From assembly GCA_020723285.1 (NCBI GenBank), contig DYJE01000045.1:1-32153 (forward strand): DNA of 32,153 nucleotides, given 5' to 3'. Position 1 is the first letter of the stretch. The number at the start of each line of letters is the position of its first letter. Source of the stretch: Desulforapulum autotrophicum. GTDB lineage: Bacteria > Desulfobacterota > Desulfobacteria > Desulfobacterales > Desulfolunaceae. This document shows, in pieces, positions 99 through 20,088 of this stretch. Made by a program: the position numbers and the translations under genes. The notes under the pieces were generated by a model. It did not search any database, was not told the DNA's origin, and saw nothing but the letters and a program-made list of their open reading frames with translations.

Positions 99-764
99 GG
101 GTATACGCGGCACGGCAACGTGTCAAATTGGCCGACATTCATCATTCCTTATACCGTGAATGCCATGTCAATCCATCGTAGGTCGGCTGAGGCACGAAAG
201 CCGACAAATGGCCCCCATCCTTGTTATTCGGCTGCCTCGTATTCATCGAACAGCAACGTCGGATTCAATGAATTCGGGCATCGCCTTCCATTAACCATCC
301 GATTATTATAAGGATCTTGTCATTGTCGGGTTTGAAGAACCCGACCTACGACAGGCTTCCTCTGTCACCTCACATACTGAATTCCGACCGCCTTATCACC
401 TCCAGCTGAAGATCGGGGTGGAGCCGGGTGAAATGGTATGCGCGGCACGGCAACGTGTCAAATTGGCCGACATTCATCATTCCTTATACCGTGAATGCCA
501 TGTCAATCCATCGTAGGTCGGCTGAGGCACGAAAGCCGACAAATGGCCCCCATCCTTGTTATTCGGCTGCCTCGTATTCATCGAACAGCAACGTCGGATT
601 CAATGAATTCGGGCATCGCCTTCCATTAACCATCCGATTATTATAAGGATCTTGTCATTGTCGGGTTTGAAGAACCCGACCTACGACAGGCTTCCTCTGT
701 CACCTCACATACTGAATTCCGACCGCCTTATCACCTCCAGCTGAAGATCGGGGTGGAGCCGGGT
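99..764. repeat. Tandem duplication (offset 335 bp) that includes the 3' end of the glycyl radical enzyme gene
   Basis: Bases 106-429 recur almost perfectly at 441-764, and a few matching bases extend each copy to about 99 and 435. Each copy contains two REP-like palindromes (178-210 and 324-352; 513-545 and 659-687). The right part of each copy matches the last codons of the glycyl radical enzyme: the real gene ends at 705, and its final 20 or so codons are copied at about 370-429. The left copy is therefore an untranslated remnant of the gene end. ORFs inside both copies encode the same peptide only because of the duplication, and I do not call them genes. Confidence 0.95.
178..352. repeat. 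Pair of REP-like palindromes (GTAGGTCGG / CCGACCTAC family)
   Basis: The first palindrome starts GTAGGTCGGCT and closes with AGCCGACAAATG; the second is TCGGGTTTGAAGAACCCGA followed by CCTAC. The same family recurs at 513-687 (duplicated copy), 21941-22024, about 23930-24085, four times in the 27.9-28.8 kb repeats, and at about 29500. One arm normally ends in CTACG and the other in CAAATG. This is typical of REP/BIME-type intergenic repeats. No RAYT transposase gene is in the window. Confidence 0.8.
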
Positions 765-3665
765 AAAATAACCGCAATAGCCGGAAATCCGGACCATGAG
801 ATCCTGGTAGTGTTCCGGGTGAAGCATGGCGTCTTTCAGGATGTCGGTGTTGACCACGTTGAACTGGATCTGCATGCCGCCCTGGTTCATGTACGCCCCG
901 GCGTAATGGGCCATTCGGGTCACGGCCTGGTCATGGGTATCACTGGCAGACGGCACCACGCGCACGTTGAAGGCCATGTTGTTGTCCAGGGTTTTGGGGT
1001 CAAGGCCCGCCACATCCCGAAGGTTGTCCAGCAGGCTTTTCGAGGCCGACGGATGGGGGGTGAGCCCCGGGGTGAAAGGCTCACCGGCCCTGCGGCCCGA
1101 GGGCAGCGCTCCGGTCAGCCGACCGTAAGCCGAATGGTAGGACATGGACCAGAAACCCGACGTGTAATGACCGCCCCGGTAGTTTTTCTGGCTGCGGAGG
1201 TAGGCGGAGACAAAACCCGTCACATGCCGGGCCATGGCCAGCGCTTCGGCGTCGCCGGACCCGAATCGGGGAACCCGTGTGCGCGTCAGGGCGTGAAGCC
1301 CCGGATCATCATTGAAATCCGTATCGATGGCCCGTTTCAGGTCCTTGAATGTCACAAGGGCGAGATCGAACACCAGTTTTTTCACCGCCATCAGCGAATC
1401 CACCACATCGGCAAGACCCGTCAGGGCCACTCCGCTGGAATTATACAAAGCTCCGCCCCGAAGCGCACCCCTCCCGCTTTTCACGCATCCGTCCATCATG
1501 GCGGAAAGCAGGGGGGCCGGATGATGGTCCTGATAAATTTCGCCGAGCTGGTTGTTGCCGATGACGCTCTGTTCCAGGATGAACCGGGTCTGGGCTTCGA
1601 AAGCGGCGAGAAATCCGTCAAAATCCGTGAAATCCCCGTTTTCGATGGACCCGGTATCTGGTCCCAGTTTCCAGTGGTTCAGGGGATGAACGCCGTTGTT
1701 CAGCGCCATCTCTAAAGGTGCCACAAGGTTCACCTCCAGACTGGACGTGGCGCTGGAATGCTTGCCCATGATGCCCGGCTCCACACAGCCGATGGGGGTC
1801 CAGTCCCTGACGTGGGTCATGTCCCAGCCGTTCTGGCCCAGGGCCTCCATCACGGCGTCGTCGCTGTGGATGCAGGGCGTGGAGCCGGTGATGTAGTTCA
1901 CGTCGCAGGTCCGCTTCAGGTAGGTTTCGCTGTTCACCCCTTGCTTGAACCGGGCGTGGACGTTGGGGTCGTTTAACCCCAGCATTTCCGTCACCTTCAG
2001 GATGATGTAGGTCATGTCGTTCACCGCATCCTCACCCGACGGCGTCACACCGCCCACCACCAGCGTGGTGTTTGGAGGCGTTCCCGAATTCAGCCAGATG
2101 CCGATTTCCGGTGACGGAATTTCGTGGCTGGCGATTTTGAGAAAAAAACAGCCCAGAAGTTCCAGCACATGGGCGATGAAGGCCTGCCGTTCCTCTTCGG
2201 TCTTCAGTTTGGCCATGTCGCTTTCGTAGTACGGCTGGAGGATCTGGTCCAGACGGCCCAGAGACGGCCCGTCGTCGGTGATCTCAAGACCGGTGGCGAT
2301 GTGGATCAAGGCAAGGGACTGGATTGCCTCGTCAAACGTTCGGGCCGGTTCGGCCGGAACACGACCGAGAATCGCCGCCATGGCTTCAAGCTCGGATTTC
2401 CGCACAGGATCTTCGGTTTCCGAAGCTTCCTGTTTGGCCTGCGCCGCCAGATGTTCGCCGTAAACCGCCACCGCGTCAAGGGTGATGATCATGGCGTTCA
2501 GGGTGTTTTTCTTTTCCTCGTCCGCGTGTTTATCCCGTTCAAGATCCGCCCGGATCTCGTCCGCAAGGCCTTTTGTCCCCTGTGTCAAAATCAGGCTGTA
2601 TGCCGGAGCCATCTGGCAGATGGACACCGTTTTCCAGAAAAAAATGGAGAAAAACCGGTCGTGAATCCGGGCGCAGAGGGGATGGTCGAATTTGATTTTC
2701 CAAAGTTCCTGGATGTTTCGTCTGGCCCAGAAAGGAAACACATGGTGATGGAGGGTCTTGATGGTTTCCTCGCTGATGGTGTAAGGCTGGAGTTTACGCT
2801 TATGGAAGGTCCGAAGTTCGCCCCAGGACAGGGGGCCGTAGGAATACGGCTGGCCCACGGCACCGAACACCGGATTTTCCGTGTAGCTTCCGGCGATAAG
2901 ATCGTTTTCGCGGATCATGGGTTTTTTGTGGTTCATCAGGTGCATGAAGCTTTCGGCTTTCCTCAGGTTCGGGTCCCAGAGTGAGCCGTCGGTTTTCCGC
3001 TCGTACCCGTTTTCCAGAAAAAAATCCGTCAGCAGTTTTCCATGCTCCGCCGACACCTCGGGCCGCATGGCGAAATACGTGTCCCTGAACGCGGAAACCC
3101 TGGGAAAATCGGAAAGATCCACATCGGCGAAATAGGGATCGGTCAGGTATTTGACGCCGGGATCGATCCGCTCGGCCCGGATGCGGCTGGCCCGCCGTTT
3201 CGTCTTTTCGCTCCGGCAGGCTGCGGCATCCACGGCCATCTCGGATTTCGCAGCATCGTCAGCCTGCGCCTCCGGGGCTTCCTCGCCGCCATCCAGAAGG
3301 CTGAGAAGGTATTCGAACAACCCCATCAACGTGATGTTTCCACTGACCCGCACTTTCCCGGTCAGCACCATGTTGATAAGGATATCGCCTTTGGCCCCCA
3401 GGTACGTGGCCACGGTGTCTTCGTCCACAAAGGTCACCAGGGTGTCCACATCATCCGGCACCGGGCTTTCCACAGACACCGTCCCGTCTTTCACGATCAC
3501 CGCCTGTGCAACCTTGCCGTCTTCGGACACAAGCCCCACAGAAAGGTCGATCCAGCCCGAGGTCCCTTTCAGTTCCCCTTGCAGGCCGGGGTCCGAGTTG
3601 AAACACAGCGCAAAAAGCGTCAGGCTTTCCTTCAGTTGTTCATTGACCGGTACGAAACTGTCCAT
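705..3665 (-). CDS. Glycyl radical enzyme (dehydratase/lyase type) with an N-terminal SCP2-like domain
   Basis: The 986-residue product is longer than usual for the family (about 750-850) because it carries an extra N-terminal domain. Residues 1-125 resemble an SCP2 sterol-carrier fold. A charged linker follows, then a pyruvate-formate-lyase-like barrel from about residue 175. The thiyl cysteine is Cys627 in GCVEP, with Glu629 as the probable base. That motif marks eliminating enzymes (glycerol or diol dehydratase, CutC, IslA) rather than pyruvate formate-lyase. The C-terminal radical loop is RISGYCGYF with the radical glycine at 962. I chose the ATG at 3665 because AGGAGG lies 5 bases upstream; an in-frame ATG 33 bases further out has no ribosome site. 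No radical-SAM activase is in the window, although one is needed and usually sits nearby. The substrate cannot be read from sequence. Confidence 0.93.
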   Translation of the reverse strand: MDSFVPVNEQLKESLTLFALCFNSDPGLQGELKGTSGWIDLSVGLVSEDGKVAQAVIVKDGTVSVESPVPDDVDTLVTFVDEDTVATYLGAKGDILINMVLTGKVRVSGNITLMGLFEYLLSLLDGGEEAPEAQADDAAKSEMAVDAAACRSEKTKRRASRIRAERIDPGVKYLTDPYFADVDLSDFPRVSAFRDTYFAMRPEVSAEHGKLLTDFFLENGYERKTDGSLWDPNLRKAESFMHLMNHKKPMIRENDLIAGSYTENPVFGAVGQPYSYGPLSWGELRTFHKRKLQPYTISEETIKTLHHHVFPFWARRNIQELWKIKFDHPLCARIHDRFFSIFFWKTVSICQMAPAYSLILTQGTKGLADEIRADLERDKHADEEKKNTLNAMIITLDAVAVYGEHLAAQAKQEASETEDPVRKSELEAMAAILGRVPAEPARTFDEAIQSLALIHIATGLEITDDGPSLGRLDQILQPYYESDMAKLKTEEERQAFIAHVLELLGCFFLKIASHEIPSPEIGIWLNSGTPPNTTLVVGGVTPSGEDAVNDMTYIILKVTEMLGLNDPNVHARFKQGVNSETYLKRTCDVNYITGSTPCIHSDDAVMEALGQNGWDMTHVRDWTPIGCVEPGIMGKHSSATSSLEVNLVAPLEMALNNGVHPLNHWKLGPDTGSIENGDFTDFDGFLAAFEAQTRFILEQSVIGNNQLGEIYQDHHPAPLLSAMMDGCVKSGRGALRGGALYNSSGVALTGLADVVDSLMAVKKLVFDLALVTFKDLKRAIDTDFNDDPGLHALTRTRVPRFGSGDAEALAMARHVTGFVSAYLRSQKNYRGGHYTSGFWSMSYHSAYGRLTGALPSGRRAGEPFTPGLTPHPSASKSLLDNLRDVAGLDPKTLDNNMAFNVRVVPSASDTHDQAVTRMAHYAGAYMNQGGMQIQFNVVNTDILKDAMLHPEHYQDLMVRISGYCGYFTRLHPDLQLEVIRRSEFSM

Positions 3666-3670
3666 GGAAT

Positions 3671-3676
3671 CCTCCT
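3671..3676 (-). promoter_or_regulatory. Ribosome binding site deciding the start of the glycyl radical enzyme
   Basis: AGGAGG on the minus strand, 5 bases before the ATG at 3665. It lies inside the longer reading frame, which argues against the upstream in-frame ATG at 3698. Confidence 0.85.
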
Positions 3677-3698
3677 GTTCGATTATTTCTTTTATCAT

Positions 3699-10745: not shown

Positions 10746-11246
10746 TCAATGGGTAGTTATTCGCACGTTCCCGCTGATCGTTGCATGATAGTCTTTGATG
10801 CTTAAACTTCCAAAACTGTTTCCCTGACCAGGAGCTGACCCCACGGTTATGGATCCGATATCAAAGTGGTCCATATCAATGGTCATGCCCGACATGGTCA
10901 CATCGATTCCTGTCACCATGGTGTTCTGGAAAGGATCCATTTTGGTTGTAACGGCAATGGATACAGGGTCTTTAAGGCCGAGAACCGCATTGAACGATAC
11001 ATCGTTCATTGAGATGTAACCCGCCTTACCGTTCGTACCGTCGTCGTCACCGTATGTGATGCTTCCGATTTCCATATCCATAACTATTTTATCAGCAGCA
11101 GTGATCGCTATCCCTGCCTGTGCTGTCGCTTCTCGCATTCCCGTTTCTGTCATTGCTGTCATGATGGCGTAGCCTTTGGACGGAGCGGAAATCATCATCA
11201 CGGTAACACCCAATACTATCATCGTAAGGAAACTAAGCTTTTTCAT
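10746..11246 (-). CDS. Exported AQAG-motif protein (DUF6160-like, FilA-like), riboswitch controlled
   Basis: 166 residues. Signal peptide at about 1-27 (MKKLSFLTMIVLGVTVMMIS...GYA), then MTAMTETGMREATAQAG with AQAG at residues 42-45. The same motif follows the signal peptide in three other proteins here (genes ending at 17304, 18077 and 19229). The rest is short beta-prone segments ending ISGNVRITTH; this tail resembles VSGVVEIAAH at the end of the 19229 gene. AAAGGAG lies 6 bases before the ATG. Upstream is an array of five tandem GEMM-I aptamers with only 29 bases between the last one and the start codon. I infer a secreted subunit or adaptor of the C39/beta-barrel system. The match to DUF6160/FilA is from memory of the motif, not from a search. 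Confidence 0.82.
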   Translation of the reverse strand: MKKLSFLTMIVLGVTVMMISAPSKGYAIMTAMTETGMREATAQAGIAITAADKIVMDMEIGSITYGDDDGTNGKAGYISMNDVSFNAVLGLKDPVSIAVTTKMDPFQNTMVTGIDVTMSGMTIDMDHFDIGSITVGSAPGQGNSFGSLSIKDYHATISGNVRITTH

Positions 11247-11275
11247 GTTGAACTCCTTTCTGTCAACGTCCTACA

Positions 11276-11341
11276 GGCAACCCGGCTGTCCATAAACCAT
11301 GGACCCGTGGCTTTCCGTCCCAGGGTTACCCCTGGTTTGGC
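11276..11341 (-). promoter_or_regulatory. GEMM-I (c-di-GMP-I) riboswitch aptamer, array unit 5 (gene-proximal)
   Basis: On the minus strand: GCCAAACC, then a P2 stem CCAGGG/CCCTGG closed by a GTAA (GNRA) tetraloop, the core GGGACGGAAAGCC, a P3 stem GTCCAT/ATGGAC, and AGCCGGGTTGCC closing P1. Position 20 (Vc2 numbering) is G, and the usual G21-C46 pair is swapped to C21-G46. Its P1 strand ends 29 bases before the ATG at 11246, which suits control of translation. Confidence 0.93.
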
Positions 11342-11347
11342 ATAGGA

Positions 11348-11415
11348 GGCGGCTCGGCTGTCCAGCACCATACTGGACCCGTGGCTTTCCGTCCCAGGGT
11401 TACCCCTGGTTTGGC
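11348..11415 (-). promoter_or_regulatory. GEMM-I riboswitch aptamer, array unit 4
   Basis: Same P2/GTAA loop and GGGACGGAAAGCC core as unit 5, with P3 arms TCCAG/CTGGA and a P1 strand ending in GCCGCC. G at position 20. It is joined to unit 5 by only 6 bases. Confidence 0.92.
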
Positions 11416-11442
11416 CTTGTACGTCTTCTGTTAACTGTTACA

Positions 11443-11508
11443 GGTAACCCGGCTATCCATGCATCATGGACCCGTGGCTTTCCGTCCCAGGGTTACCCCT
11501 GGTTTGGC
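11443..11508 (-). promoter_or_regulatory. GEMM-I riboswitch aptamer, array unit 3
   Basis: Nearly identical to unit 5, including the AGCCGGGTTACC closing strand; G at position 20. A 27-base linker separates it from unit 4. Confidence 0.92.
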
Positions 11509-11515
11509 ATGTGGA

Positions 11516-11583
11516 GGCGGCTCGGCTGTCCAGCACCATGCTGGACCCGTGGCTTTCTGTCCCAGGGTTACCCCTGGTTTAGC
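11516..11583 (-). promoter_or_regulatory. GEMM-I riboswitch aptamer, array unit 2, with a compensated base pair
   Basis: Matches unit 4 except for two changes that compensate each other: GCTAAACC instead of GCCAAACC, and GGGACAGAAAGCC instead of GGGACGGAAAGCC. In Vc2 numbering this turns C22-G45 into U22-A45. G at position 20 is kept. Confidence 0.92.
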
Positions 11584-11595
11584 AAGTGTTTTTAT

Positions 11596-11662
11596 GGCAA
11601 CCCGGCTATCCATGAAACCATGGACCCGTGGCTTTCCGTCCCAGGGTTACCCCTGGTTTGGC
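11596..11662 (-). promoter_or_regulatory. GEMM-I riboswitch aptamer, array unit 1 (promoter-proximal)
   Basis: Same type as units 3 and 5; G at position 20, GTAA tetraloop, GGGACGGAAAGCC core. It is the first aptamer transcribed. The promoter should lie in 11663-11881, where I could not pick clear -35/-10 boxes. Confidence 0.93.
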
Positions 11663-11881
11663 GTGCTTGTCACCCTTTTATCTCCATATCCGCCCTTTTT
11701 TAAGAAAAGAGCGTATATGGTTCCCGGCTTGTCAAAGATCGAACGATTTCCCTTGAACACGCAGAAGTCCTGTTTAGACTATCGGCATTCTCCAAAAGAA
11801 ACTTGATATCAAAGTACAGATAACTCGTGAGCTTATAATAATTTTTGCTCTTCGTAATCTCATAAAAAAAAACGTCTGGCA

Positions 11882-13375
11882 TTAAAAAGTCATCTCAAAA
11901 CGGACACAATCGGGTTCGGAAATATCAACAACACCGATTCCATGAAGTTTATTTGTTTCGTCAAAAATAAGCGGTGCAATATCAAAAACCCTTATAATGC
12001 CCAAATCCACTTCACGTCCGTTTACAATCCATATCCATTTATCTTTTTTTTGCGCAATATAAGCTACGTTTCGGCTGTCAGGACTAAAAACGGCCTTACC
12101 GACAACATCAAAACTTTTTTCTTCTCCGCCACCCCTGACCATAAACATCTTATCACCCTTTGCCGCCTGATAAGCCATGTCTGAGGAGTCAGGACAGAAA
12201 ACAGGATCAAACACTTCATCATATCCCCGCCCCTTCTTACCGTCATAAACAATGGATGATTTATTGTCCTGCCTGGCTTTATATGAAAAATGTTTTGAAT
12301 CAGGGCTAAAAGCCATGCTGCCTATAAATTCATAATCTTCACCGGCTTTACCGTCCAAAATAACCGAATACCTTTTCTTCTTTACTGCAACATAGGCAAA
12401 CCTTTTGGAATCCGGACTGAACGTATGAACCCCCAGATAATCGAATATCGGCCCTTCATTTCCGTCAATGACCATCGCCCATTTTCTTCCTTTCATAACC
12501 GGATAAGCCAGGCGTTTTGAATCAGGACTAAACACGGGTTCACTTACCGTGGGATACTCCGGCATCTCCTTGTCATTGTCGACAATCATGAGCATTTTAT
12601 TTTGCTGGGCAGCATAAGCAAGGCGTGATGAGTTCGGGCTGAACCGGAGAGAAGTGATATTTTCGTAGCCCTTACCCAGAACACCGTCTTTCCATAAATG
12701 CCATGCAGATCCCTTTAATACGGCGCAGGCAAGAAATTTCGAATCGGGGCTGTATACAATGTCTTTAACACCCTCAAAAGGACCAATTTTTTTGTTATTT
12801 TTAACAATGAACCATTGGTTTTCTGTGAATGCTATATAAACCACATTCATCGAATCCGGACTGAATAGGGGAATGCTCTTGACTTGAAAAAACTTCTCTC
12901 CAATCGCATGATCAATAACAACAGCTTGCTCGTTACCCACCTGAACTCTGTAGGTGTGCCTTTTGCCATCAGAACTGAAAACGATATCTGACACACCATC
13001 ATATTCAGCACCTTTTTTTCCATCGATCACTGCAAATTGTTTTTTATTATGAACAGCTATATACGCCATCCTGCTTTTTCCAAATAATGGAGTCCCTTTG
13101 GCGATTCCGTCATAAACTTCACCTCTTTTTCCGTTTAATGTCACAGCCATCTTCCCTTGGATCATTGTCGCATAAGCCAGCTTATCACAAACGGGAAAAT
13201 TCGTTGCAACTCCAAACAACTTAGAATCCTTAGGTATTTTCCCAAGAGATACTTTCTTTACACCGGGAAGGCCACTGCTTTTTTCTGAAAAAACTGGCGC
13301 TACAGAAACAAAAAATACAATAACCGACCATAAAATGACCCGCTCAATTAACCACCGCTGTTTCTCACACTTCAT
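11882..13375 (-). CDS. Exported PD40/TolB-type beta-propeller protein
   Basis: 497 residues with a signal peptide near 12-30 (VILWSVIVFFVSVAPVFS). Then nine or so repeats of about 42 residues with the pattern FSPDSKRxAYxAxKxxxxxVxDGKxGxxYD (for example FSPDSKRLAYPVMKGRKW and FSPDSKRFAYVAVKKKRY), typical of PD40/TolB-like blades. Each blade also carries a DGK/DGN turn, so this may be a dedicated subfamily. It is the last gene of the operon with the C39 peptidase, 68 bases after the FadL-like gene. No clear terminator follows before the five-aptamer leader. Probably a periplasmic or surface scaffold of the export system; the role is inferred from position. Confidence 0.83.
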   Translation of the reverse strand: MKCEKQRWLIERVILWSVIVFFVSVAPVFSEKSSGLPGVKKVSLGKIPKDSKLFGVATNFPVCDKLAYATMIQGKMAVTLNGKRGEVYDGIAKGTPLFGKSRMAYIAVHNKKQFAVIDGKKGAEYDGVSDIVFSSDGKRHTYRVQVGNEQAVVIDHAIGEKFFQVKSIPLFSPDSMNVVYIAFTENQWFIVKNNKKIGPFEGVKDIVYSPDSKFLACAVLKGSAWHLWKDGVLGKGYENITSLRFSPNSSRLAYAAQQNKMLMIVDNDKEMPEYPTVSEPVFSPDSKRLAYPVMKGRKWAMVIDGNEGPIFDYLGVHTFSPDSKRFAYVAVKKKRYSVILDGKAGEDYEFIGSMAFSPDSKHFSYKARQDNKSSIVYDGKKGRGYDEVFDPVFCPDSSDMAYQAAKGDKMFMVRGGGEEKSFDVVGKAVFSPDSRNVAYIAQKKDKWIWIVNGREVDLGIIRVFDIAPLIFDETNKLHGIGVVDISEPDCVRFEMTF

Positions 13376-13443
13376 GAAGCTGCCTTTCCACTGTTGATTA
13401 TAAAAAACTCATCGATACAACACACGCGATATTGCACCATAAC

Positions 13444-15348
13444 TTATCGATTGTATTCCGCTGAAAGCTTGTCAAGATAGGCGTTAAAATCCTCATCCTC
13501 TTTTTCCGAGGTATCATGGGAATCCGGAACAGCTTCATCATTCTCCGTGCTATCCTCAACTTTTTTCCCAAAGGGAAGAATCTTTTTAATCAGATCCTTG
13601 ATCTTATGGATAGCGTGTTTGACCATCTCCTGCTGGTGGTGCATCATCTCGATCTGAAGTTCAAGGGGCATGGTCACACCAAACGTTGCGATATAAATGC
13701 TCAGGTCCTGCCTGTAATCCAAACCGGCATAGGGATTTCCCATTTTAGTAAAATCAAGGGAGTTGAAATTGGTACTCTGGTTGTTATAGATGGTAAAATG
13801 ATTGCTGAACAGATAGCCAAAGCCAAGATCAACGTTCATCCCATTGGGCAGCTTCAATCCCAATCCCGTTCCAATAAAATCGGCATCGGGTATAAAGAAC
13901 AAAGCGTCAAAATGACTGTGCTGCAGTGACGTGGGACGTTTTTCGTAACCGCACCGCAAGGTGAGTTTTTCATTCACCTCATACTCGGTTCCGATGCTCC
14001 AGTGCCAGGTGTCTTTCATATTTCTTTCAACAACATATGTATAAGCCCCGTGAGAATAACCCAGCATTTTTGCAATACGCAGAATCTGAATCCTCTGGTC
14101 AAAAACCAAACGGTCTTCTTTTCCTGCTTTTGCCCAGTTGGCCCAGTGCAAGTCCAGAAGAATTTTTAATTTTTCAATGGGCCGAACCATAATGCCGGTC
14201 TGGATCCTTTTTGGAAAAATCTGGGACGCCGTCACCGTTCCACTTTGGTATGGCACTTTGTTAATAGGCAGATCCAGCATACCGGCTGATTCCATGGTCA
14301 TGGGTGTCAATGAATTCCAGTGAACCTGACGCTGAAACTGTTCGCTGTATTCCCAGATGTATTTACCGGAAAGCTCTGCAGAAGACTCACTCTGATACAC
14401 CAAACCATATGAAAGCCAATTGTAGGGGCGCCACAACAGCCCAAGATTATATGAAGGGACGAAGTCATCCCGCATGTCAAGTGAGAGACTCAAAGCATGT
14501 TCGTATGGCCCCAACCCACCACCAAGCCACGGCGGCGGGAGCGTCTGCTCTGAAACAACCGGGATTTCCAGTTTTTCTGTTGCATCACCGATAACACGTG
14601 TCAAAGCAACGAGTTCGTTGGGGGACCTGACATCCACCTCGATTCCCATGGCCCGCTGTGCCATTCCGACAGACACACCCAGAGAAAGGGTGTCAGAAAG
14701 GGCGTAACTGGCCGTTGGCGCGGCATAGATCAGATGCTGTGCATAAACTGATTTTGCTCCGAACCTGAAAGGGTCTCCGCTGTCTCTGTGTGCCATACCA
14801 CCTCCATAGGGTGCGTAGTTGGCATAAGCAAACGTCCAGCGGCTGTCTTTTTCCCGTGAAGCCAGCCCTAAATTTGATGCGACAAGAAAATCCAGGGGGC
14901 CGTAAAAGGGCAGATACATACGAGCCGATGAATTTGTCCCGGATGATCCGTTTAAAGGATCGGGCCCACCATGATCGCTGTTGGGATCCGCTCCAGGATT
15001 TTCTTTATACCGGTCAGGCCATTTATCAGGGTCTGGCCCCCAGTATCCATTCATGAACCCTTCAAAATTATCAGCTGTTTTGAAACGGCCCGTGCGTTTG
15101 ATGATCGGAAGACCAAAACCGTTGCTGAATGTTTTACCCTCATCCAACATCGAAAGCCCCGCCGGGTTATAGTGAACCGACATCAAACCTGGAGGATCCG
15201 CCGTACAGGTGTTGGCCAGTGAAACAGCCCGTGCATCCACGGCCAACTGCTCATTGAACACAGCCAGAGATATGTCAGGCGTCAGTACCATCAGCACCCC
15301 GATGAGCAGTGTAATGCATGACCTTTTTATTGATGTAAAAATGATCAA
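13444..15348 (-). CDS. FadL/OmpP1-like outer membrane barrel with a charged C-terminal tail (FilD-like)
   Basis: 634 residues. A TTG start at 15348 is preferred because GGGAG lies 6 bases upstream and it gives a good signal peptide ending near DISLA. The mature N-terminus (DARAVSLANTCTADPPGL...HYNPAGLSML) has the NPAG signature of the OmpP1/FadL/TodX family. Repeated amphipathic strands follow up to about residue 550. Unusually, the barrel is followed by some 75 residues rich in Lys, Glu and Asp (HKIKDLIKKILPFGKK ... EKEDEDFNAYLDKL). This tail is probably helical and points to a periplasmic contact. The gene starts 27 bases after the coiled-coil barrel gene. Acinetobacter fil clusters are remembered to include a FadL-like member, which supports the system assignment. 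Confidence 0.85.
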   Translation of the reverse strand: MIIFTSIKRSCITLLIGVLMVLTPDISLAVFNEQLAVDARAVSLANTCTADPPGLMSVHYNPAGLSMLDEGKTFSNGFGLPIIKRTGRFKTADNFEGFMNGYWGPDPDKWPDRYKENPGADPNSDHGGPDPLNGSSGTNSSARMYLPFYGPLDFLVASNLGLASREKDSRWTFAYANYAPYGGGMAHRDSGDPFRFGAKSVYAQHLIYAAPTASYALSDTLSLGVSVGMAQRAMGIEVDVRSPNELVALTRVIGDATEKLEIPVVSEQTLPPPWLGGGLGPYEHALSLSLDMRDDFVPSYNLGLLWRPYNWLSYGLVYQSESSAELSGKYIWEYSEQFQRQVHWNSLTPMTMESAGMLDLPINKVPYQSGTVTASQIFPKRIQTGIMVRPIEKLKILLDLHWANWAKAGKEDRLVFDQRIQILRIAKMLGYSHGAYTYVVERNMKDTWHWSIGTEYEVNEKLTLRCGYEKRPTSLQHSHFDALFFIPDADFIGTGLGLKLPNGMNVDLGFGYLFSNHFTIYNNQSTNFNSLDFTKMGNPYAGLDYRQDLSIYIATFGVTMPLELQIEMMHHQQEMVKHAIHKIKDLIKKILPFGKKVEDSTENDEAVPDSHDTSEKEDEDFNAYLDKLSAEYNR

Positions 15349-15375
15349 AAAAAACTCCCGAAACTGGACCAACCG

Positions 15376-16485
15376 TTACAATTCATATGTCAGGGGCACC
15401 CGCACCTGAATAGAAAAATCAGGATCATTGTTTGTCAGGCCGATTCCCAGCCTGACATTCACAGATTTTTTTGGAGAGATATTCCATCCGGTGCCTACAC
15501 TGAATACGGAAGACAGCGACCCTTTTGTTTTAACATCAGATGTATTCGGCCCTTTCCAGTCAAGTGTCGTCGAAGATTGATAGGAATATTGGTATCCCAG
15601 TGTCAGTGTCGCTTTATAGGACAGGGAATATCCAATCCCCATGGAGAAAGAATAAACCTCACCGGGTTTCACGCTGGCAAGGGAAATACCTGATTCTCCT
15701 TGCGACCCTGATTTGTAATTCAAGTGGGTCGTTTCAATTCCATGGTCAATATTGACTCCCCCGAACACGACCAAGGGGTCAACGGATTTGCTCATGTTAC
15801 AACCCAGGCCAATGGAGTACACCCCGTTACCCGTTGACAACTCTGTCGTGGTGTCAATTTTATACGGGCTTCGCCCTGTCGGACATGTCAGGGTGCCTGA
15901 GAGAATAATGGATGGAAGATCACCACCGCTTTTGATGGGCTGAAAGAGGCAGCCAAAGGACACATCCCCCAAATCTGAAACGTCTTTTGCAGTGCTGCTT
16001 GTCTGGCTGTTGTACTTATAGACAAAGGGGAAATTTGCGTTCACGGTCATGTTTTCTTTGACCGGATATTCGACAAAAAAAGAATTGGTCACTGTATGGT
16101 ATGAATTGTGTGCGACATCAGTTACCGAACTTCCGGCGGCCTGAACTTCATCGAAAGAATCTCCCGCGTACCTGATGCTGTATTCAAATCCAAGGTTCCC
16201 CGGTTTCATCAGCGTGTAATCACGGCCAGCCGCTGTCAGGATAGCCTCATCGCCGGATGTTTTTTCCTCTTCCGTTGTTTCGAGCCGCCTTCGTATGTCG
16301 TTTTCTTCCTCCATCTTTGTCAGCTTGTCTTCAAGCTTTTTTATCTGATCTTTAAGCTGATCGATGTCACTTAAAGGCTTTGCCGGTTCAGACACAACAA
16401 CAGGAGCTTCCTCAGAAAAACCAGGAATGGAAACACTCATAATTGTTATTAATATCATCATGCATTTGAAAAGAATCTTTATCAC
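15376..16485 (-). CDS. Coiled-coil plus beta-barrel outer membrane pore (FapF-like / FilC-like)
   Basis: 369 residues from a GTG at 16485, chosen because GGAGG lies 7 bases upstream and the signal peptide then begins cleanly (IKILFKCMMILITIMSVSIPGFS). An ATG 33 bases further out has no ribosome site. After the signal comes a heptad coiled coil at about 39-75 (DIDQLKDQIKKLEDKLTKME). Then beta strands typical of an outer membrane barrel run to the terminal PLTYEL. A periplasmic coiled coil before a 12-strand barrel is the architecture of FapF, the pore that secretes Fap amyloid subunits in Pseudomonas. It lies 46 bases after the C39 peptidase gene, as expected for an export pair. The family assignment rests on architecture and neighbours; I ran no search. 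Confidence 0.82.
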   Translation of the reverse strand: MIKILFKCMMILITIMSVSIPGFSEEAPVVVSEPAKPLSDIDQLKDQIKKLEDKLTKMEEENDIRRRLETTEEEKTSGDEAILTAAGRDYTLMKPGNLGFEYSIRYAGDSFDEVQAAGSSVTDVAHNSYHTVTNSFFVEYPVKENMTVNANFPFVYKYNSQTSSTAKDVSDLGDVSFGCLFQPIKSGGDLPSIILSGTLTCPTGRSPYKIDTTTELSTGNGVYSIGLGCNMSKSVDPLVVFGGVNIDHGIETTHLNYKSGSQGESGISLASVKPGEVYSFSMGIGYSLSYKATLTLGYQYSYQSSTTLDWKGPNTSDVKTKGSLSSVFSVGTGWNISPKKSVNVRLGIGLTNNDPDFSIQVRVPLTYEL

Positions 16486-16531
16486 CTGGCGTCCTCCAGA
16501 TACCGTACCTTTTTCCATGATTAATCACGGA

Positions 16532-17284
16532 TTATCGTTTATACCTGCTCTTTGTCAGGTCGCTGTTATGAAAATCAACATCCCATTCCCTGGGGAGGTC
16601 GAAAGGTGCGCTGACATCGAACATCAAGGTTTTTTCCATGTCTTTGTCAATGAATCTGAGATCTTTTTCAGTGAGGGTAAGACACGTCAATGCCTTTCCA
16701 TATTTAGGTGAAACCCGGAAAAGGATTTGGTTGTACCACATCTTCTCGAACTGGTCGACAGAATAACTTCCGTTTCCGCGCCAGGGATCTGTTACAAAAA
16801 CATGGCCCTTGTGAATACCTTTTAAAACTACGAAATGACGGTATCCGAAAAGTTCCAGTGGAACAATGCAGGGCCACAGTTCAGGATTCTTCAGATCTGA
16901 TATTTCAGCATTATAGCCACCAGCCTTATAACCGAGGGCATCGACAAACTTTTGCATATCCCATAAAGAAAAAGCCCTCAGTTTTTTTATCTGCTCTTTA
17001 TCACCGTATTCAAGAAGGCCCTGGATGATCTGCTTTTCCGAAAAATTTTCACCCAGATAAAAATTGAGGATCGTTCCTAACGCGGCAGAACCACAACTGT
17101 AATCGTAATTCTGTTTCACCATGCAGCTGTTAATGGTTTCGGACAGCGGGGTCACTTCATATCGTATTCTTAATCGTTCATCGACACCTGCGGCTATATT
17201 CATCTCTCCCTTCGGAGATGTATGAAAAGGATGAAATCCTGCGATCAATCCCGCAAATATCATAAACGCTAAAGCAACATGCAT
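16532..17284 (-). CDS. Exported C39-family cysteine peptidase (FapD/FilB-like)
   Basis: 250 residues with a short hydrophobic N-terminus (MHVALAFMIFAGLIAGF), so the domain should face the periplasm. All C39 active-site elements are visible: Gln58 (oxyanion), Cys64 in QNYDYSCGSAALGT, His150 in GYRHFVVLKG and Asp166 in VTDPWRG. Stand-alone C39 proteins of this size with a signal sequence occur in the Fap amyloid operon (FapD) and in Acinetobacter fil clusters (FilB). ABC-transporter C39 domains are fused to membrane and ATPase parts, which are absent here. C39 enzymes cleave after double-glycine-type leaders, and the four AQAG proteins nearby are the obvious candidate substrates. It starts 19 bases after the stop of the preceding AQAG gene. 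Confidence 0.9.
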   Translation of the reverse strand: MHVALAFMIFAGLIAGFHPFHTSPKGEMNIAAGVDERLRIRYEVTPLSETINSCMVKQNYDYSCGSAALGTILNFYLGENFSEKQIIQGLLEYGDKEQIKKLRAFSLWDMQKFVDALGYKAGGYNAEISDLKNPELWPCIVPLELFGYRHFVVLKGIHKGHVFVTDPWRGNGSYSVDQFEKMWYNQILFRVSPKYGKALTCLTLTEKDLRFIDKDMEKTLMFDVSAPFDLPREWDVDFHNSDLTKSRYKR

Positions 17285-17303
17285 ATAAGCTCATACCTCA
17301 TAT

Positions 17304-18035
17304 TTACGGCGAATCCCACCACGGGGTACCGGATCCCGACAAGGGGAGAGATTTTTCGTCATACCCAGCCACAACCTGAATTCCAAAATTGCCAGGGTTC
17401 ATATTCAAGACGAAAAACAGTCCTTTGTCGCTGGTCGCGCTTGCATTGGAATCAAAAACAAAATTAACGGGACTTCCGGAAAGAACCGTTGACCTGTCGA
17501 GAATGGCGTCCGGACTTCCACTGCCGGTCAGTGAAGAACTGTAAATCCCGGTAAAGCTTGAAAAATTACCGCTGATGGTACCTTGCAGTCTGTTCGATCC
17601 GATAATCACACGTTCAAGAACAGGATCTGTTTTTGACAAATCGTCAAAATCGGTGATAAACACAAGTCCGTCAATGACAAGAGGATCGCTGGCGGATGTT
17701 CCGATCTTTAATGTATCCCATTTCTGGTCCCACCCCGCTGATCCGGCTTTCGTGTACCAGCCTGCCGCAAAGCTGTTAATGGTTGCATAGGTTTCGATAT
17801 GAATATCCAGAAACAGTCTGGCCGTGTTGTTATTGAGCGTAAAATTTGTAAATCCGGCCTGAGCTGTCGTTGTCTTGAGCTCGTCACCGGTCATAGCCTT
17901 AAGTTCAGAGTGGACAGGACCAGCGAAAAACAGAACATGGATGAAGGTCATGATCACCACAGCCAGCAAAATTACCCTGGGGCTAAATGCGCACCCTTTC
18001 TGCTTGCTGTTTTGTTTGATCATTGCCTGCATCAT
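17304..18035 (-). CDS. Exported AQAG-motif protein in the C39 operon (DUF6160-like)
   Basis: 243 residues from the ATG at 18035, where AGGA lies about 5 bases upstream; an in-frame ATG at 18071 lacks a ribosome site. A long n-region precedes the hydrophobic core (VILLAVVIMTFIHVLFF), with likely cleavage near VHS-E. Next comes LKAMTGDELKTTTAQAG with AQAG at 58-61. The mature part is Ser/Gly/Asn/Thr-rich with beta character and has no cysteine. The C-terminus GTPWWDSP differs from that of the other paralogues. The two AQAG genes are 41 bases apart and immediately precede the peptidase gene. A candidate exported subunit. Confidence 0.82.
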   Translation of the reverse strand: MMQAMIKQNSKQKGCAFSPRVILLAVVIMTFIHVLFFAGPVHSELKAMTGDELKTTTAQAGFTNFTLNNNTARLFLDIHIETYATINSFAAGWYTKAGSAGWDQKWDTLKIGTSASDPLVIDGLVFITDFDDLSKTDPVLERVIIGSNRLQGTISGNFSSFTGIYSSSLTGSGSPDAILDRSTVLSGSPVNFVFDSNASATSDKGLFFVLNMNPGNFGIQVVAGYDEKSLPLSGSGTPWWDSP

Positions 18036-18076
18036 ATCTTTCCTGTTCGCGACGATAAGTGAATTGATCATAAATT

Positions 18077-18997
18077 CTAAGGATTGCCAAGGCCTCTGCC
18101 CGGTATTTCGATATACAGCTTTTCAACCTTGATCCCGTCTATAGCGATACTGCCGAGATTATTGCCACCCATGTTCAAATTTTCCACGCGAATGGACCCC
18201 TCCATGGGAAGATTCAAAGCGATATAGCCTGTATTGTATCGCGGATTGGCGACCGAATATGAATTACCGCCGCTGTCCGTAAAATTCCAGCTGACGGTCT
18301 TGTCTCCTGAAAAATCAACACTTGCGGGAGAACCGGACAGGATATTTCCAATGGTAAATTCACCGGGCTCCACGACCCAGGTCGAAGGATCTTCCAATGT
18401 TCCGCTTGAAGAAGAAAACGACCGGGTAAAGGTTATTCCTGAAAGAGTTAATGACGATGACGAATTGTAATTATACTGGAATTTATCGACTTTCAGCCGC
18501 ATTCCAAGCTCAAAATCGATACCGCTGACCGCATGTGCTCCTGCGTAGAAATGAAAAGAAGAAATTCCAAAATTGTCTATGAAAAGACTGCCGATGGACG
18601 TATTGCAAAATACGATGTCATCCACAGTTATATCCGAAGAGAGATTCAAATCCGGGCTGTCCGCAAAAAACATGACTTTGTTATCATAAAGGCCGACATC
18701 CAGACTGAGGTGGTTGATGGATCCGTCATCGTTCATATCTTTTGAACCCGTGTCGAGCTTAGAGATGATCCCTATATTGTTAAAACTTATGGACTGCGCG
18801 GAGTCATTGGGATTCGAGATGCGAAAGTTGTCAAACTGATCCTCCCTGACCATATTGCCGATAGCAATATCAACACCGGCCTGGGCGACCACTTTTTTCA
18901 TTTCATTTGGCGTCAGGGATTCAAGAGCCACCGCCATGGTATTGTTCATAACAAACATAATAAGAAAGAGGCTCGTGAACCGGATCTTTTTTTTCAT
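18077..18997 (-). CDS. Exported AQAG-motif protein, first gene of the C39/beta-barrel operon (DUF6160-like)
   Basis: 306 residues from the ATG at 18997, with GGAGG 8 bases upstream. A longer frame would start inside that ribosome site. Signal peptide MKKKIRFTSLFLIMFVMNNTMAVA, then LESLTPNEMKKVVAQAG with AQAG at 38-41. The mature region has many short beta segments rich in Ser, Asn, Gly and Asp (SLDVGLYDNKVMFF; SFHFYAGAHAVSGIDF) and a C-terminal IEIPGRGLGNP. It is preceded by its own GEMM-I aptamer (19038-19104), whose closing strand can pair with the ribosome site. Confidence 0.85.
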   Translation of the reverse strand: MKKKIRFTSLFLIMFVMNNTMAVALESLTPNEMKKVVAQAGVDIAIGNMVREDQFDNFRISNPNDSAQSISFNNIGIISKLDTGSKDMNDDGSINHLSLDVGLYDNKVMFFADSPDLNLSSDITVDDIVFCNTSIGSLFIDNFGISSFHFYAGAHAVSGIDFELGMRLKVDKFQYNYNSSSSLTLSGITFTRSFSSSSGTLEDPSTWVVEPGEFTIGNILSGSPASVDFSGDKTVSWNFTDSGGNSYSVANPRYNTGYIALNLPMEGSIRVENLNMGGNNLGSIAIDGIKVEKLYIEIPGRGLGNP

Positions 18998-19000
18998 GAC

Positions 19001-19045
19001 GGGCGCCTCCACCATTTTCTATTATGTTAGTGCTATAGGCGGCCC
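19001..19045 (-). promoter_or_regulatory. Candidate riboswitch expression platform: P1 strand complementary to the ribosome site
   Basis: On the minus strand the 3' strand of P1 ends GGGCCGCCT (19045-19037), while the ribosome site reads AGGCGCCC (19008-19001, overlapping GGAGG). These pair over GGG/CCC and CGCCT/AGGCG with one bulged C. Pairing would hide the ribosome site. When ligand stabilises P1, the strand is used up and the site is free, so an 'on' switch is predicted. Confidence 0.5.
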
Positions 19046-19104
19046 GACCATCCGTTTTCAAACGGATTCGAAGCTTTCCGTCCCCGAATTACTTCGGGTT
19101 TGGC
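19038..19104 (-). promoter_or_regulatory. GEMM-I riboswitch aptamer before the C39 operon
   Basis: Minus strand: AAAAGCCAAACC, P2 CCCGAA/TTCGGG closed by GTAA, core GGGGACGGAAAGC, P3 with arms ATCCGTTT/AACGGAT, then GGTCGGGCCGCC closing P1. G at position 20, so c-di-GMP is the expected ligand. It lies 41 bases upstream of the ATG at 18997. Confidence 0.92.
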
Positions 19105-19146
19105 TTTTCTGATTCAGTAGTAAAAACTATTTTTATTTTACTAAAA

Positions 19147-19183
19147 AAGCCCCTTCCGGAACAGCAGGTTGAGGAAGGGGCTT
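19147..19183 (-). terminator. Strong terminator of the upstream AQAG gene
   Basis: Perfect 11-bp stem AAGCCCCTTCC / GGAAGGGGCTT with a 15-base loop, followed on the minus strand by TTTTTTA. It closes the 19229-19942 gene, so the C39 operon needs its own promoter within 19105-19146 or read-through from upstream. Confidence 0.92.
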
Positions 19184-19228
19184 CAAGTCGGACACTTACT
19201 TTTTTATTTTATCCAGCGATACAGAAGA

Positions 19229-19942
19229 TTAGTGAGCTGCGATTTCAACAACGCCGCTTACGATGGCCATTCTGCTTGCGCCTTTGGAGATGTTGATGAA
19301 GTTGGCACCGTCGTTAACTGCACCAGCCATTGCAACGCCTACATCATAAGTATCAGCTGTGGTGGTGATTTCAAGAGTAGGAAGACCAATAACAACGCCC
19401 ACTACATCAAGATCTGCCCAAGCAGCTGTTGAGAATTCATAAAGACCGTTGGCAAGAGCGATATTGTCGCAAACACCATTGGCAACCATTGCAGCTGCAG
19501 CAGCGGCTTTGGTGGGAGCGGCAGCAACGATACCATCAATAATTGCGCGTGAAGCTGCGGGGATGGCGTCTTTGTTGCCATTGTTACCTTCCATCAGGAT
19601 GTTGCAAGCACCAACGTCAATGGAAAGTGCAGCAGCTTTTACCCAGGGAGCGGTGTAACCGGAAGTGGTGAAATCCGTAGCTGAAGTCAGAGCGTTGTAA
19701 CCTTTGATGACATGTTTGTTGCTGATCACGATCGCACCGCCGTTTCCATCATAACCATCGGCGTCAGTGTAGGTGGTGGCGCCTACATACTGTTCGATAA
19801 CCACGTTGTCGAGGGTGATGCTAACACCAGCCTGACCGGTGGCGGCTTTCATGCTGTCGGCTGACATTGAGGTAAGAGCGAAAGCGGAAGAGCTGATCAT
19901 GAGAGATGCACCAAGGATTGCGCTGAGAGCTAATTTTTTCAT
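19229..19942 (-). CDS. Exported TGQAG-motif protein, putative main subunit (DUF6160/FilA-like)
   Basis: 237 residues from the ATG at 19942 with GGAGAAG 5 bases upstream. Signal peptide MKKLALSAILGASLMISSSAFA, then LTSMSADSMKAATGQAG with QAG at 37-39. The mature protein is rich in Ala, Gly, Val and Thr, has an alanine run (AAAAAAMVANG) and two cysteines (GACNIL and GVCDNI), and ends VSGVVEIAAH. It is a single-gene unit: its own GEMM-I riboswitch upstream and a strong terminator right after. This suggests expression at a different level from the export operon, as expected for a major secreted subunit. That role is inference; the shared motif with the three other exported proteins is direct observation. 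Confidence 0.85.
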   Translation of the reverse strand: MKKLALSAILGASLMISSSAFALTSMSADSMKAATGQAGVSITLDNVVIEQYVGATTYTDADGYDGNGGAIVISNKHVIKGYNALTSATDFTTSGYTAPWVKAAALSIDVGACNILMEGNNGNKDAIPAASRAIIDGIVAAAPTKAAAAAAMVANGVCDNIALANGLYEFSTAAWADLDVVGVVIGLPTLEITTTADTYDVGVAMAGAVNDGANFINISKGASRMAIVSGVVEIAAH

Positions 19943-19956
19943 TTTTCTTCTCCATA

Positions 19957-19986
19957 GTAAATTTAAAAAATTAATTGTAAATTTAC
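19957..19986 (-). promoter_or_regulatory. Inverted repeat in the leader between riboswitch and start codon
   Basis: GTAAATTTA and TAAATTTAC form a 9-bp stem around a 12-base A/T loop, directly before the ribosome site. Just upstream, TTACC-TCT-GGTAA could pair as an alternative to P1 closure of the riboswitch. Together they could be the expression platform. Confidence 0.45.
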
Positions 19987-19990
19987 CAGA

Positions 19991-20074
19991 GGTAACCCGA
20001 CCATCCGCCACGTTCGGCACTGCAACTTGACGGACTCGTTGGCTTTCCGTCCCCGGATTACTCCGGGTTTGGTC
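19991..20074 (-). promoter_or_regulatory. GEMM-I riboswitch aptamer with A at position 20 (GEMM-Ib, cGAMP type?)
   Basis: Minus strand: AAAAGACCAAACC, P2 CCCGGA/TCCGGG with GTAA loop, core GGGGACGGAAAGCC, an enlarged P3 of about 40 bases, then GGTCGGGTTACC. Aligned to the six other aptamers here, the base before CCAAACC is A instead of G. In Vc2 numbering this is position 20, which contacts the alpha guanine of the ligand. A20 is the known signature of Geobacter GEMM-Ib RNAs that prefer 3',3'-cGAMP. The ligand is inferred, not shown. Confidence 0.88.
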
Positions 20075-20088
20075 TTTTCTTTGGCGTT

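What the first reader, a model, noticed from the sequence alone, without database searches (positions are those of the whole stretch)
11276..11662. Five tandem GEMM-I riboswitches in one leader
Five complete aptamers, each with GNRA tetraloop, GGGACGGAAAGCC-type core and closing P1, occupy 387 bases immediately before an AQAG-protein gene. Tandem pairs of riboswitches are known; five in a row is exceptional. Serial aptamers could sharpen the response, act as a ligand sponge, or give graded control.
Basis: seen in the sequence. Interest (0 to 1): 0.92.

Follow-up and report, generated by a model that had tools for sequence, protein, structure and literature searches.

The report
Five-sensor c-di-GMP riboswitch array
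A bacterial messenger RNA carries five copies of the same signal-sensing RNA in a row before a gene beside a surface-fibre-like cluster, and related bacteria keep rows of up to six, longer than the rows described in the survey passages we could read.

Summary
The array is real. All five units score 54.7-71.8 bits against RF01051 (cut-off 35), on the minus strand at 11273-11672, just before a DUF6160 gene. All have GNRA loops and canonical c-di-GMP contact bases. A separate closing P1 for every unit is not supported: neighbours are too close. A four-unit array precedes a similar gene elsewhere in the genome. Another genus has an orthologous five-unit array (80-90% identity unit by unit), so this is no assembly artefact. 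Other Desulfobacterota have 3-6 units before similar genes; Clostridia have rows of 3-5 too.

Beyond the finding: 13 of 14 such Desulfobacterota leaders carry a boxA-like antitermination motif 86-125 nt before the first core; 9 of 14 also have a strong hairpin after it. A CCUCC anti-Shine-Dalgarno precedes the last aptamer in 9-11 of 14, and a CUG..CAG stretch follows it in 11. I read this as one c-di-GMP-controlled, translation-level switch with many aptamers and one working platform, shielded from premature termination. Direction (ON favoured) and the role of the upstream units are inferred. The survey passages I read report doublets and triplets of this class. Novelty: new variant of a known kind.

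The parts
11729..11739 (-). boxA-like motif ATCTTTGACAA (10 of 11 to TTCTTTGAMAA), 99 nt before the first aptamer core
   Evidence: p=0.002 against 1000 shuffles of its own leader; the motif was chosen after seeing the leaders, and the window's copy is not the window's best hit to a published boxA
11684..11720 (-). 5' hairpin CCAUAU...AUAUGG; arms differ in sequence among relatives
   Evidence: 66-nt fold z -3.12
11665..11683 (-). conserved 5' box AGAUAAAAGGGUGACAAGC before aptamer 1
11593..11672 (-). aptamer A1 (GEMM-I)
   Evidence: RF01051 71.8 bits
11513..11593 (-). aptamer A2 (GEMM-I), with a U-A in place of C-G at the base of P2 (CUAAACC..GACAG)
   Evidence: RF01051 54.7 bits; same U-A in the orthologue
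11513..11517 (-). CCUCC at the A2-A3 junction
11440..11518 (-). aptamer A3 (GEMM-I)
   Evidence: RF01051 65.4 bits
11428..11443 (-). internal linker CUGUAACAGUUAACAG, like the terminal platform but without a Shine-Dalgarno after it
   Evidence: sequence; identical in L048
11345..11425 (-). aptamer A4 (GEMM-I)
   Evidence: RF01051 57.4 bits
11344..11349 (-). CCUCCU (anti-Shine-Dalgarno) at the A4-A5 junction
11273..11351 (-). aptamer A5 (GEMM-I)
   Evidence: RF01051 64.3 bits
11260..11276 (-). CUGU...ACAG stretch between A5 and the Shine-Dalgarno
   Evidence: weak in the window: -1.6 kcal/mol, a third of shuffles as good
11253..11257 (-). Shine-Dalgarno AGGAG
   Evidence: sequence
10746..11246 (-). 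target gene: 166-aa DUF6160 protein with AQAG; signal-peptide-like start by eye
   Evidence: PF19657, 36.9 bits, cut-off 27; no NCBIfam match

Best explanation
It is one c-di-GMP riboswitch built from five class-I aptamers in a leader of some 490 nt (from the boxA-like site to the start codon). Shown: five intact aptamers with canonical ligand bases, kept as a five-unit array in another genus, before a DUF6160 gene, with no terminator-like site on the coding strand of the leader. Inferred: a boxA-like site at the 5' end recruits the NusB/S10 antitermination complex so that polymerase crosses the long untranslated leader without Rho termination. The aptamers lie in tight blocks (A1-A2-A3 and A4-A5) whose junctions are too short for separate P1 helices, so neighbours are coupled. 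Only the last aptamer touches the ribosome-binding site. Unbound, the CCUCC junction before it can pair with the AGGAG Shine-Dalgarno; with c-di-GMP bound, the junction is drawn into the last aptamer's P1 (UCCUAU/GUAGGA in this window) and translation starts (ON). The upstream units arose by duplication of pair-plus-platform and steepen the response. The result is expression of a protein next to a Fil/Fap-like surface-fibre cluster at high c-di-GMP.
For: Five units over the RF01051 cut-off. G20 in 5 of 5 window units; over 14 arrays G20 53/56, A47 56/56, C92 55/56, and only 2 of 448 P2 cells unpaired (1 of 57 units dropped). Unit-by-unit orthology with L048, identical A3-A4 linker, shared A2 U-A pair. 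boxA-like motif 10-11 of 11 in 13 of 14 leaders within 160 nt, 0 of 16 controls. With a published boxA, 9 or more of 11 in 14 of 14 leaders against 6 of 29 single-unit (one doublet) leaders and 1 of 8 other arrays. No minus-strand terminator-like site in 11200-11950. CCUCC or CUCCU before the last aptamer in 9 of 14 arrays, in 3 of 29 internal junctions and in 0 of 14 first units. With A5's contact bases held unpaired, the window's best fold has P1 UCCUAU/GUAGGA. FilB-like 1.8e-53 and FilC-like 3.5e-56 neighbours.
Against: No experiment. The fold model hardly places the junction on the window's Shine-Dalgarno in the unbound state (0.01 expected pairs free, 0.12 with aptamers folded) and gives slightly more when the contact bases are held (0.53), the opposite of the ON model. 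In L015, L059, L077, L079 and L095 the junction-SD helix coexists with folded aptamers, which would also fit OFF. P1 was seen by eye only in the window, L048 and L015. The window's CUGU/ACAG stretch is weak. The boxA motif was noticed before it was tested; at the stricter cut of 10 of 11 the published boxA gives 4 of 14 arrays against 2 of 29 singles, and in the window its best hit lies elsewhere. No 16S gene was found in 7 of 7 genomes, so the rRNA boxA could not be compared. The 14 leaders are related, not 14 independent events. L051, a four-unit array before another gene, lacks boxA.
Confidence: 0.5

Rival explanations
1. The same single-platform switch but OFF: the ligand-bound last aptamer closes a CCUCC/AGGAG helix and hides the Shine-Dalgarno.
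For: In 5 of 10 arrays modelled the junction-SD helix keeps 2.7-4.9 expected pairs when the aptamers are forced to fold; in L049 it forms (3.55) only when the contact bases of both aptamers are held.
Against: In the window, L048 and L050 it is weak in every mode (0.00-0.80); high c-di-GMP usually favours surface fibres (general knowledge); the window's P1 uses the same CCU.
Confidence: 0.3
2. Only the last aptamer works; the others are passive products of tandem duplication.
For: Copy number varies from 3 to 6. Alternate units share identical P3 arms within a genome (L015 u1/u3 and u2/u4; L048 u1/u3 nearly so).
Against: All units keep contact bases and P2 pairing with few exceptions; units keep positional identity between genera and share the A2 U-A pair.
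Confidence: 0.2
3. Five independent riboswitches in series, each with its own expression platform, as in the Bacillus triple tandem.
For: Known architecture for tandem class-I riboswitches (PMC4759541, passages).
Against: No terminator-like site on the minus strand; cores are 74-93 nt apart, leaving little room for a platform except in the A3-A4 linker, which lacks a Shine-Dalgarno.
Confidence: 0.07
4. The array is a ligand sponge that buffers c-di-GMP.
For: Five binding sites per transcript.
Against: In 14 of 14 arrays a start codon follows 70-148 nt after the last core; one mRNA can hold only five molecules.
Confidence: 0.03
5. The boxA-like element is something else, for example a promoter -35 (TTGACA is part of the motif) or a protein operator.
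For: TTTGACA is present in many copies; the rRNA boxA could not be checked; clear promoters upstream were found only in L059 (p=0.003) and perhaps L095 (p=0.023), the other 12 being no better than chance (p 0.12 or more).
Against: Several copies read TTTGAAAA; in L059 an 11 of 12 promoter ends 17 nt before the motif; by eye no good -10 follows the motif in the window.
Confidence: 0.3

Closest known systems
c-di-GMP-I riboswitch, RF01051 (GEMM-I)
   Same: Every unit is a member by covariance score, core, GNRA loop and contact bases.
   Different: Five units in one leader; no P1 and platform of its own for each.
Triple-tandem c-di-GMP-I riboswitch Bc3-5 of Bacillus thuringiensis (PMC4759541, passages)
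   Same: Same class in tandem before one operon.
   Different: There each unit has its own aptamer and terminator-type platform; here units abut and only the last reaches a Shine-Dalgarno.
Glycine riboswitch with two aptamers and one platform, and its quadruplets (PMC9481103, passages)
   Same: Several aptamers of one class sharing one platform; repeated blocks.
   Different: Different aptamer; no aptamer-aptamer contact shown here; 3-6 units.
boxA-led CRISPR arrays (PMC7862264, passages)
   Same: boxA-like motif ahead of a long untranslated repeat array; an inserted boxA raised transcript along an artificial array there.
   Different: Here the array is the leader of an mRNA, and no antitermination has been shown.
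rrn leaders and lambda nut sites (PMC4807359 and PMC10931766, passages)
   Same: boxA-like motif near a stem-loop in a long untranslated RNA.
   Different: Partner proteins and function are unknown here.

Membership tests
c-di-GMP-I riboswitch (RF01051) | Covariance score over 35 bits | tested here: met
   5 of 5 units, 54.7-71.8 bits
c-di-GMP-I riboswitch (RF01051) | Contact bases G20, A47, C92 (Vc2 numbering recalled) | tested here: met
   G20 in 5 of 5 window units; over 14 arrays G20 53/56, A47 56/56, C92 55/56
c-di-GMP-I riboswitch (RF01051) | Closing P1 helix in each unit | tested here: not met
   about six nt between A4 and A5; a candidate P1 for A5 only. The RF01051 consensus shown has no paired P1, so this does not remove membership
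c-di-GMP-I riboswitch (RF01051) | Binds c-di-GMP | not testable with these tools
   needs in-line probing
c-di-GMP-I-UAU and -GGC sub-families (RF03168, RF03167) | Diagnostic bases of the sub-family consensus (reading of the names recalled) | tested here: not met
   three array units pass these cut-offs, but the alignments show G and C where UAU has U, and A where GGC has G
Tandem of complete riboswitches | Own expression platform per aptamer | tested here: not met
   no minus-strand terminator-like site; little space between units
Multi-aptamer riboswitch with one platform (glycine-like) | Several aptamers feeding one platform, cooperatively | tested here: inconclusive
   the layout fits; cooperativity cannot be tested by sequence
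boxA antitermination site | Sequence match to boxA in the leader | tested here: inconclusive
   13 of 14 leaders at 10-11 of 11 to a motif chosen from the leaders; published boxA enriched at 9 of 11, less so at 10
boxA antitermination site | NusB/S10-dependent read-through | not testable with these tools
   needs experiment

The most novel reading that the evidence does not exclude
A new kind of leader: a boxA-hairpin-box antitermination module in front of an evolving array of 3-6 c-di-GMP aptamers that act as one multivalent sensor. Ligand-free, C-rich aptamers would expose Rho-loading RNA and ligand-bound ones hide it, so that antitermination and c-di-GMP occupancy together set read-through as well as translation.
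Probability: 0.2. Interest if true: 0.85.

Novelty: new variant of a known kind. Interest (0 to 1): 0.64.

Why it matters
In the passages I read, tandem class-I c-di-GMP riboswitches are doublets and triplets (PMC9481103, PMC12452182, PMC4759541). Conserved rows of four to six aptamers with a single Shine-Dalgarno-linked platform give a natural test of how RNA alone builds steep responses. Their association with a boxA-like element suggests that long untranslated sensor arrays may need antitermination, as has been proposed for CRISPR arrays. My searches for boxA with riboswitch terms (13 and 6 papers, listings and starts of abstracts; passages of two) showed no such association in print. The neighbours link c-di-GMP to a Fil/Fap-like surface-fibre cluster in uncultured Desulfobacterota.

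Tried and rejected
Misassembly: rejected by the orthologous array in another genus. Rfam sub-family ligands (UAU/GGC): rejected, because the diagnostic bases differ. A leader peptide starting at the conserved AUGGGUAAAAG: rejected by eye, because the frame is not kept in the window and L048. Intrinsic terminators as platform: none on the minus strand. Genome-wide boxA hits as support: 29 hits against 6 for the reversed control, but 25 of 29 lie inside ORFs of 100 codons or more, so not used. rRNA leader comparison: no 16S found in 7 of 7 genomes. Strict boxA-plus-GEMM pattern over the phylum: 2 of 395 genomes, one of them the own four-unit array, the other (G093) not examined; too strict for a census. 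Alignment A1 had misoriented rows and was replaced by A2.

Parser limits: the L079 junction was cut wrongly and L102's CCUCC lies further upstream; by eye both hold CCUCC, giving 11 of 14. In one search L059 was split wrongly; by eye it has CUGUG..CACAG. L052 has four units by eye and regex, but 2 by the structure finder and 3 in the RF01051 list. Its 5' hairpin was cut off and was folded in a better-placed stretch afterwards.

Selection: the 14 arrays are the Desulfobacterota-type arrays with 3 or more units whose next gene looked DUF6160-like. L051 (lipase-like target by eye), six Clostridia arrays and L084 were kept apart as 'other arrays'. Next genes of the arrays in L057, L060, L061, L064, L070, L076, L089, L090, L091, L092, L098, L100 and L112 were not examined. 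One of 57 units (L052 u3) was dropped from the pair counts because its stem length differs. One search modelled 10 of the 14 arrays; L052, L054, L055 and L102 were left out.

Full report
OBSERVATION. The window lies in a 5.44-Mb genome in 92 contigs (G000, contig C75). A search of that genome with RF01051 lists 14 class-I c-di-GMP aptamers, all over the cut-off. Five are the array at 11273-11672 (minus strand), four form a second array on contig C79 (7082-7405), two are single units in the window (19035-19114 and 19988-20083), and three are single units elsewhere. The five array units score 71.8, 54.7, 65.4, 57.4 and 64.3 bits from 5' to 3'. Plain cmscan shows three or four of them, and my own model three. 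The probable reason is that adjacent full-length hits overlap by 1-7 nt. The window holds two matches to a triple-core pattern; 100 shuffles hold none.

THE UNITS. All five have a GTAA loop and G at the position that discriminates c-di-GMP (G) from cAMP-GMP (A) (the discriminating base is described in PMC9481103, passages). Unit A2 has UA where the others have CG in the short helix at the base of P2, a two-sided change. Over 34 aptamers of this order, the Rfam-type structure has 96.9% standard pairs and 14 of 18 pairs with two-sided changes; none of 500 shuffles and none of the slid versions reaches this. Over 57 units of 14 arrays (one dropped for its stem length), 2 of 448 P2 cells are unpaired, and the contact bases are G20 53/56, A47 56/56 and C92 55/56. 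The sub-family labels UAU and GGC given by cmscan should not be read as altered ligands, because the bases in which those consensus lines differ are the canonical ones here (alignments; the reading of the names is from recall).

NOT ONE SWITCH PER UNIT. Core-to-core spacings are 79, 75, 93 and 74 nt. Between A4 and A5 only about six nucleotides are free. A closing P1 in every unit is therefore not supported. The only longer linker (A3-A4) holds CUGU..ACAG, like the stretch between A5 and the Shine-Dalgarno, but no Shine-Dalgarno follows it. This looks like a duplicated block in which only the terminal platform is kept. No terminator-like site was found on the minus strand between 11200 and 11950.

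RELATIVES. Of 58 genomes (the own one included), 38 have an RF01051 match. Array loci were read out. G001, another genus of the family, has a five-unit array whose units match the window's in order (80, 83, 84, 85 and 90% on the diagonal; for the third the fifth unit ties at 84), an identical A3-A4 linker and the same A2 UA pair. G001 also has a four-unit counterpart of the C79 array (82-91% on the diagonal). G016 has six units, G045 four, and G026 four by eye. A scan of 84,980 species genomes with a triple-core pattern gave 59 stretches. A structure-based finder confirms 3 or more units in 27 of 59, 4 or more in 13 and 5 in 2; with the covariance model, 28 of 59 have aptamers and 31 none. The record titles include Desulfobacterota, Clostridia and a few others. 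The pattern allows only certain spacings, so these are lower bounds; two of these loci (L063, L094) are the G045 and G001 arrays again. In the order, 8 of 389 genomes have the pattern, and the reversed control is 0.

TARGET. The window gene encodes a 166-aa protein of DUF6160 (PF19657, 36.9 bits, cut-off 27); it has no NCBIfam match. Twelve of the 14 array targets were scanned: 9 are over the cut-off and 3 (L015, L049, L052) just below it, with E-values of 4.4e-5 or less; L054 and L095 were not scanned but look alike. Upstream in the window lie a weak FilA-like (1e-7), a FilB/FapD-like (1.8e-53) and a FilC/FapF-like (3.5e-56) gene. All are below NCBIfam's own cut-offs, so this is a Fil/Fap-like cluster, not a certified one. 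The genes before the array (FilC/FapF-like, FadL-like, propeller) recur in the same order before the C79 array, at 36, 46 and 33% identity, so cluster and array were duplicated together or moved together. The single unit at 19988-20083, before the FilA-like ORF, has A at the discriminating position, as has a single unit in G001 (L048 core 13348), so a cAMP-GMP-type sensor may sit in the same cluster.

LEADER MODULE. Upstream of the arrays I noticed a TTCTTTGAMAA motif that resembles boxA. It matches 10-11 of 11 in 13 of 14 array leaders, 86-125 nt before the first core (each p at or below 0.007 against shuffles), and in 0 of 16 control leaders. In the 14th, the six-unit array, a similar motif lies about 200 nt before the core. 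Because I chose the motif after seeing the leaders, I repeated the test with an 11-nt boxA published for a CRISPR array (PMC7862264, passages). A score of 9 or more is reached in 14 of 14 array leaders, 6 of 29 single-unit leaders (one a doublet) and 1 of 8 other arrays; a score of 10 or more in 4, 2 and 0. In the window the best hit of that test lies elsewhere, so the window itself is a weak case. Between motif and first aptamer, a hairpin with variable arms is present in 8 of 14 leaders (z -2.7 to -5.3) and in L052 when its stretch is placed better (z -7.1); in the other five z is -1.6 to +1.8. Next comes UAAAAG-containing sequence, in 10 of 11 leaders aligned; L052, L055 and L102 were not aligned and lack it by eye. 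In the genome this box occurs at both arrays; the 8 further loose hits are at the level of the control pattern (11). Known function of boxA: NusB/S10 binding and protection of long untranslated RNA from Rho (PMC4807359 and PMC10931766, passages). The window's boxA-like site starts 493 nt before the start codon.

PLATFORM. CCUCC or CUCCU occurs in the 14 nt before the last aptamer in 9 of 14 arrays (11 by eye), in 3 of 29 internal junctions and in 0 of 14 first units. CUG..CAG opens the tail in 11 of 14, and the tail folds among the best 10% of shuffles in 9 of 14; the window's does not. Partition-function models of 10 arrays place the junction on the Shine-Dalgarno in L015, L059, L077, L079 and L095; in L049 only when the contact bases of both aptamers are held; and weakly in the window, L048 and L050. 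In L115 the anti-Shine-Dalgarno sits one junction earlier and is paired with the Shine-Dalgarno in the unconstrained fold. With A5's contact bases held, the window's best fold has P1 UCCUAU/GUAGGA, which uses part of the CCUCCU. I therefore favour ON by release of the anti-Shine-Dalgarno, with OFF as a serious rival.

LITERATURE. For class I, the 2022 survey reports 347 doublets and 12 triplets (PMC9481103, passages); its quadruplets are of the glycine class. PMC12452182 (passages) reports c-di-GMP tandem enrichment in Thermodesulfobacteriota and lists triples. A search for quadruple with c-di-GMP riboswitch and tandem found 13 papers, of which the 10 listed show no such array by title and start of abstract. 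Supplementary tables could not be read, so longer rows may be recorded there, and many subscription papers are not held.

VERDICT. A real, conserved, multi-aptamer c-di-GMP leader; new as a variant in number, in the single platform and in the boxA-like association; mechanism inferred.

Noticed in passing
window 19988-20083 (-): Single GEMM-I unit with A at the discriminating position (cAMP-GMP type), as in a single unit of G001 (L048 core 13348), before a FilA-like ORF; two ligands may act on one cluster.
   Followed up: partly
window 11882-19966 (-): Fil/Fap-like cluster (FilA-like, DUF6160, C39 peptidase FilB/FapD-like, FilC/FapF-like, FadL-like, TmcD-like propeller); the last three recur in order before the four-unit array on C79 (33-46% identity).
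   Followed up: partly
L071, L062, L072, L101, L096, L105: Clostridia have tight rows of 4-5 GEMM-I units, by eye before surface-protein-like genes, with a shared 3' stretch before the Shine-Dalgarno (CGGATAC(T/C)TTTGC..TCCG in most); no boxA found.
   Followed up: partly
L015 units 1/3 and 2/4; L048 units 1/3: Alternate units share P3 arms within a genome but differ between genomes, which suggests block duplication or gene conversion.
   Followed up: no
L052 unit 2, L054 unit 3, L077 unit 2: Three array units carry A at the discriminating position, so some arrays may mix ligand specificities.
   Followed up: no
L051 cores 5263-4991 (-): Four-unit array of another sequence type (two units with A at the discriminating position) before a lipase-like gene (by eye), without boxA.
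   Followed up: no
window 705-3698 (-): Pyruvate-formate-lyase-like glycyl radical enzyme downstream of the array gene.
   Followed up: no
window 11228-11700 (-): In the unconstrained fold of the whole leader the near-identical P3 arms of A2 and A4 pair with each other; sister units may exchange strands.
   Followed up: no
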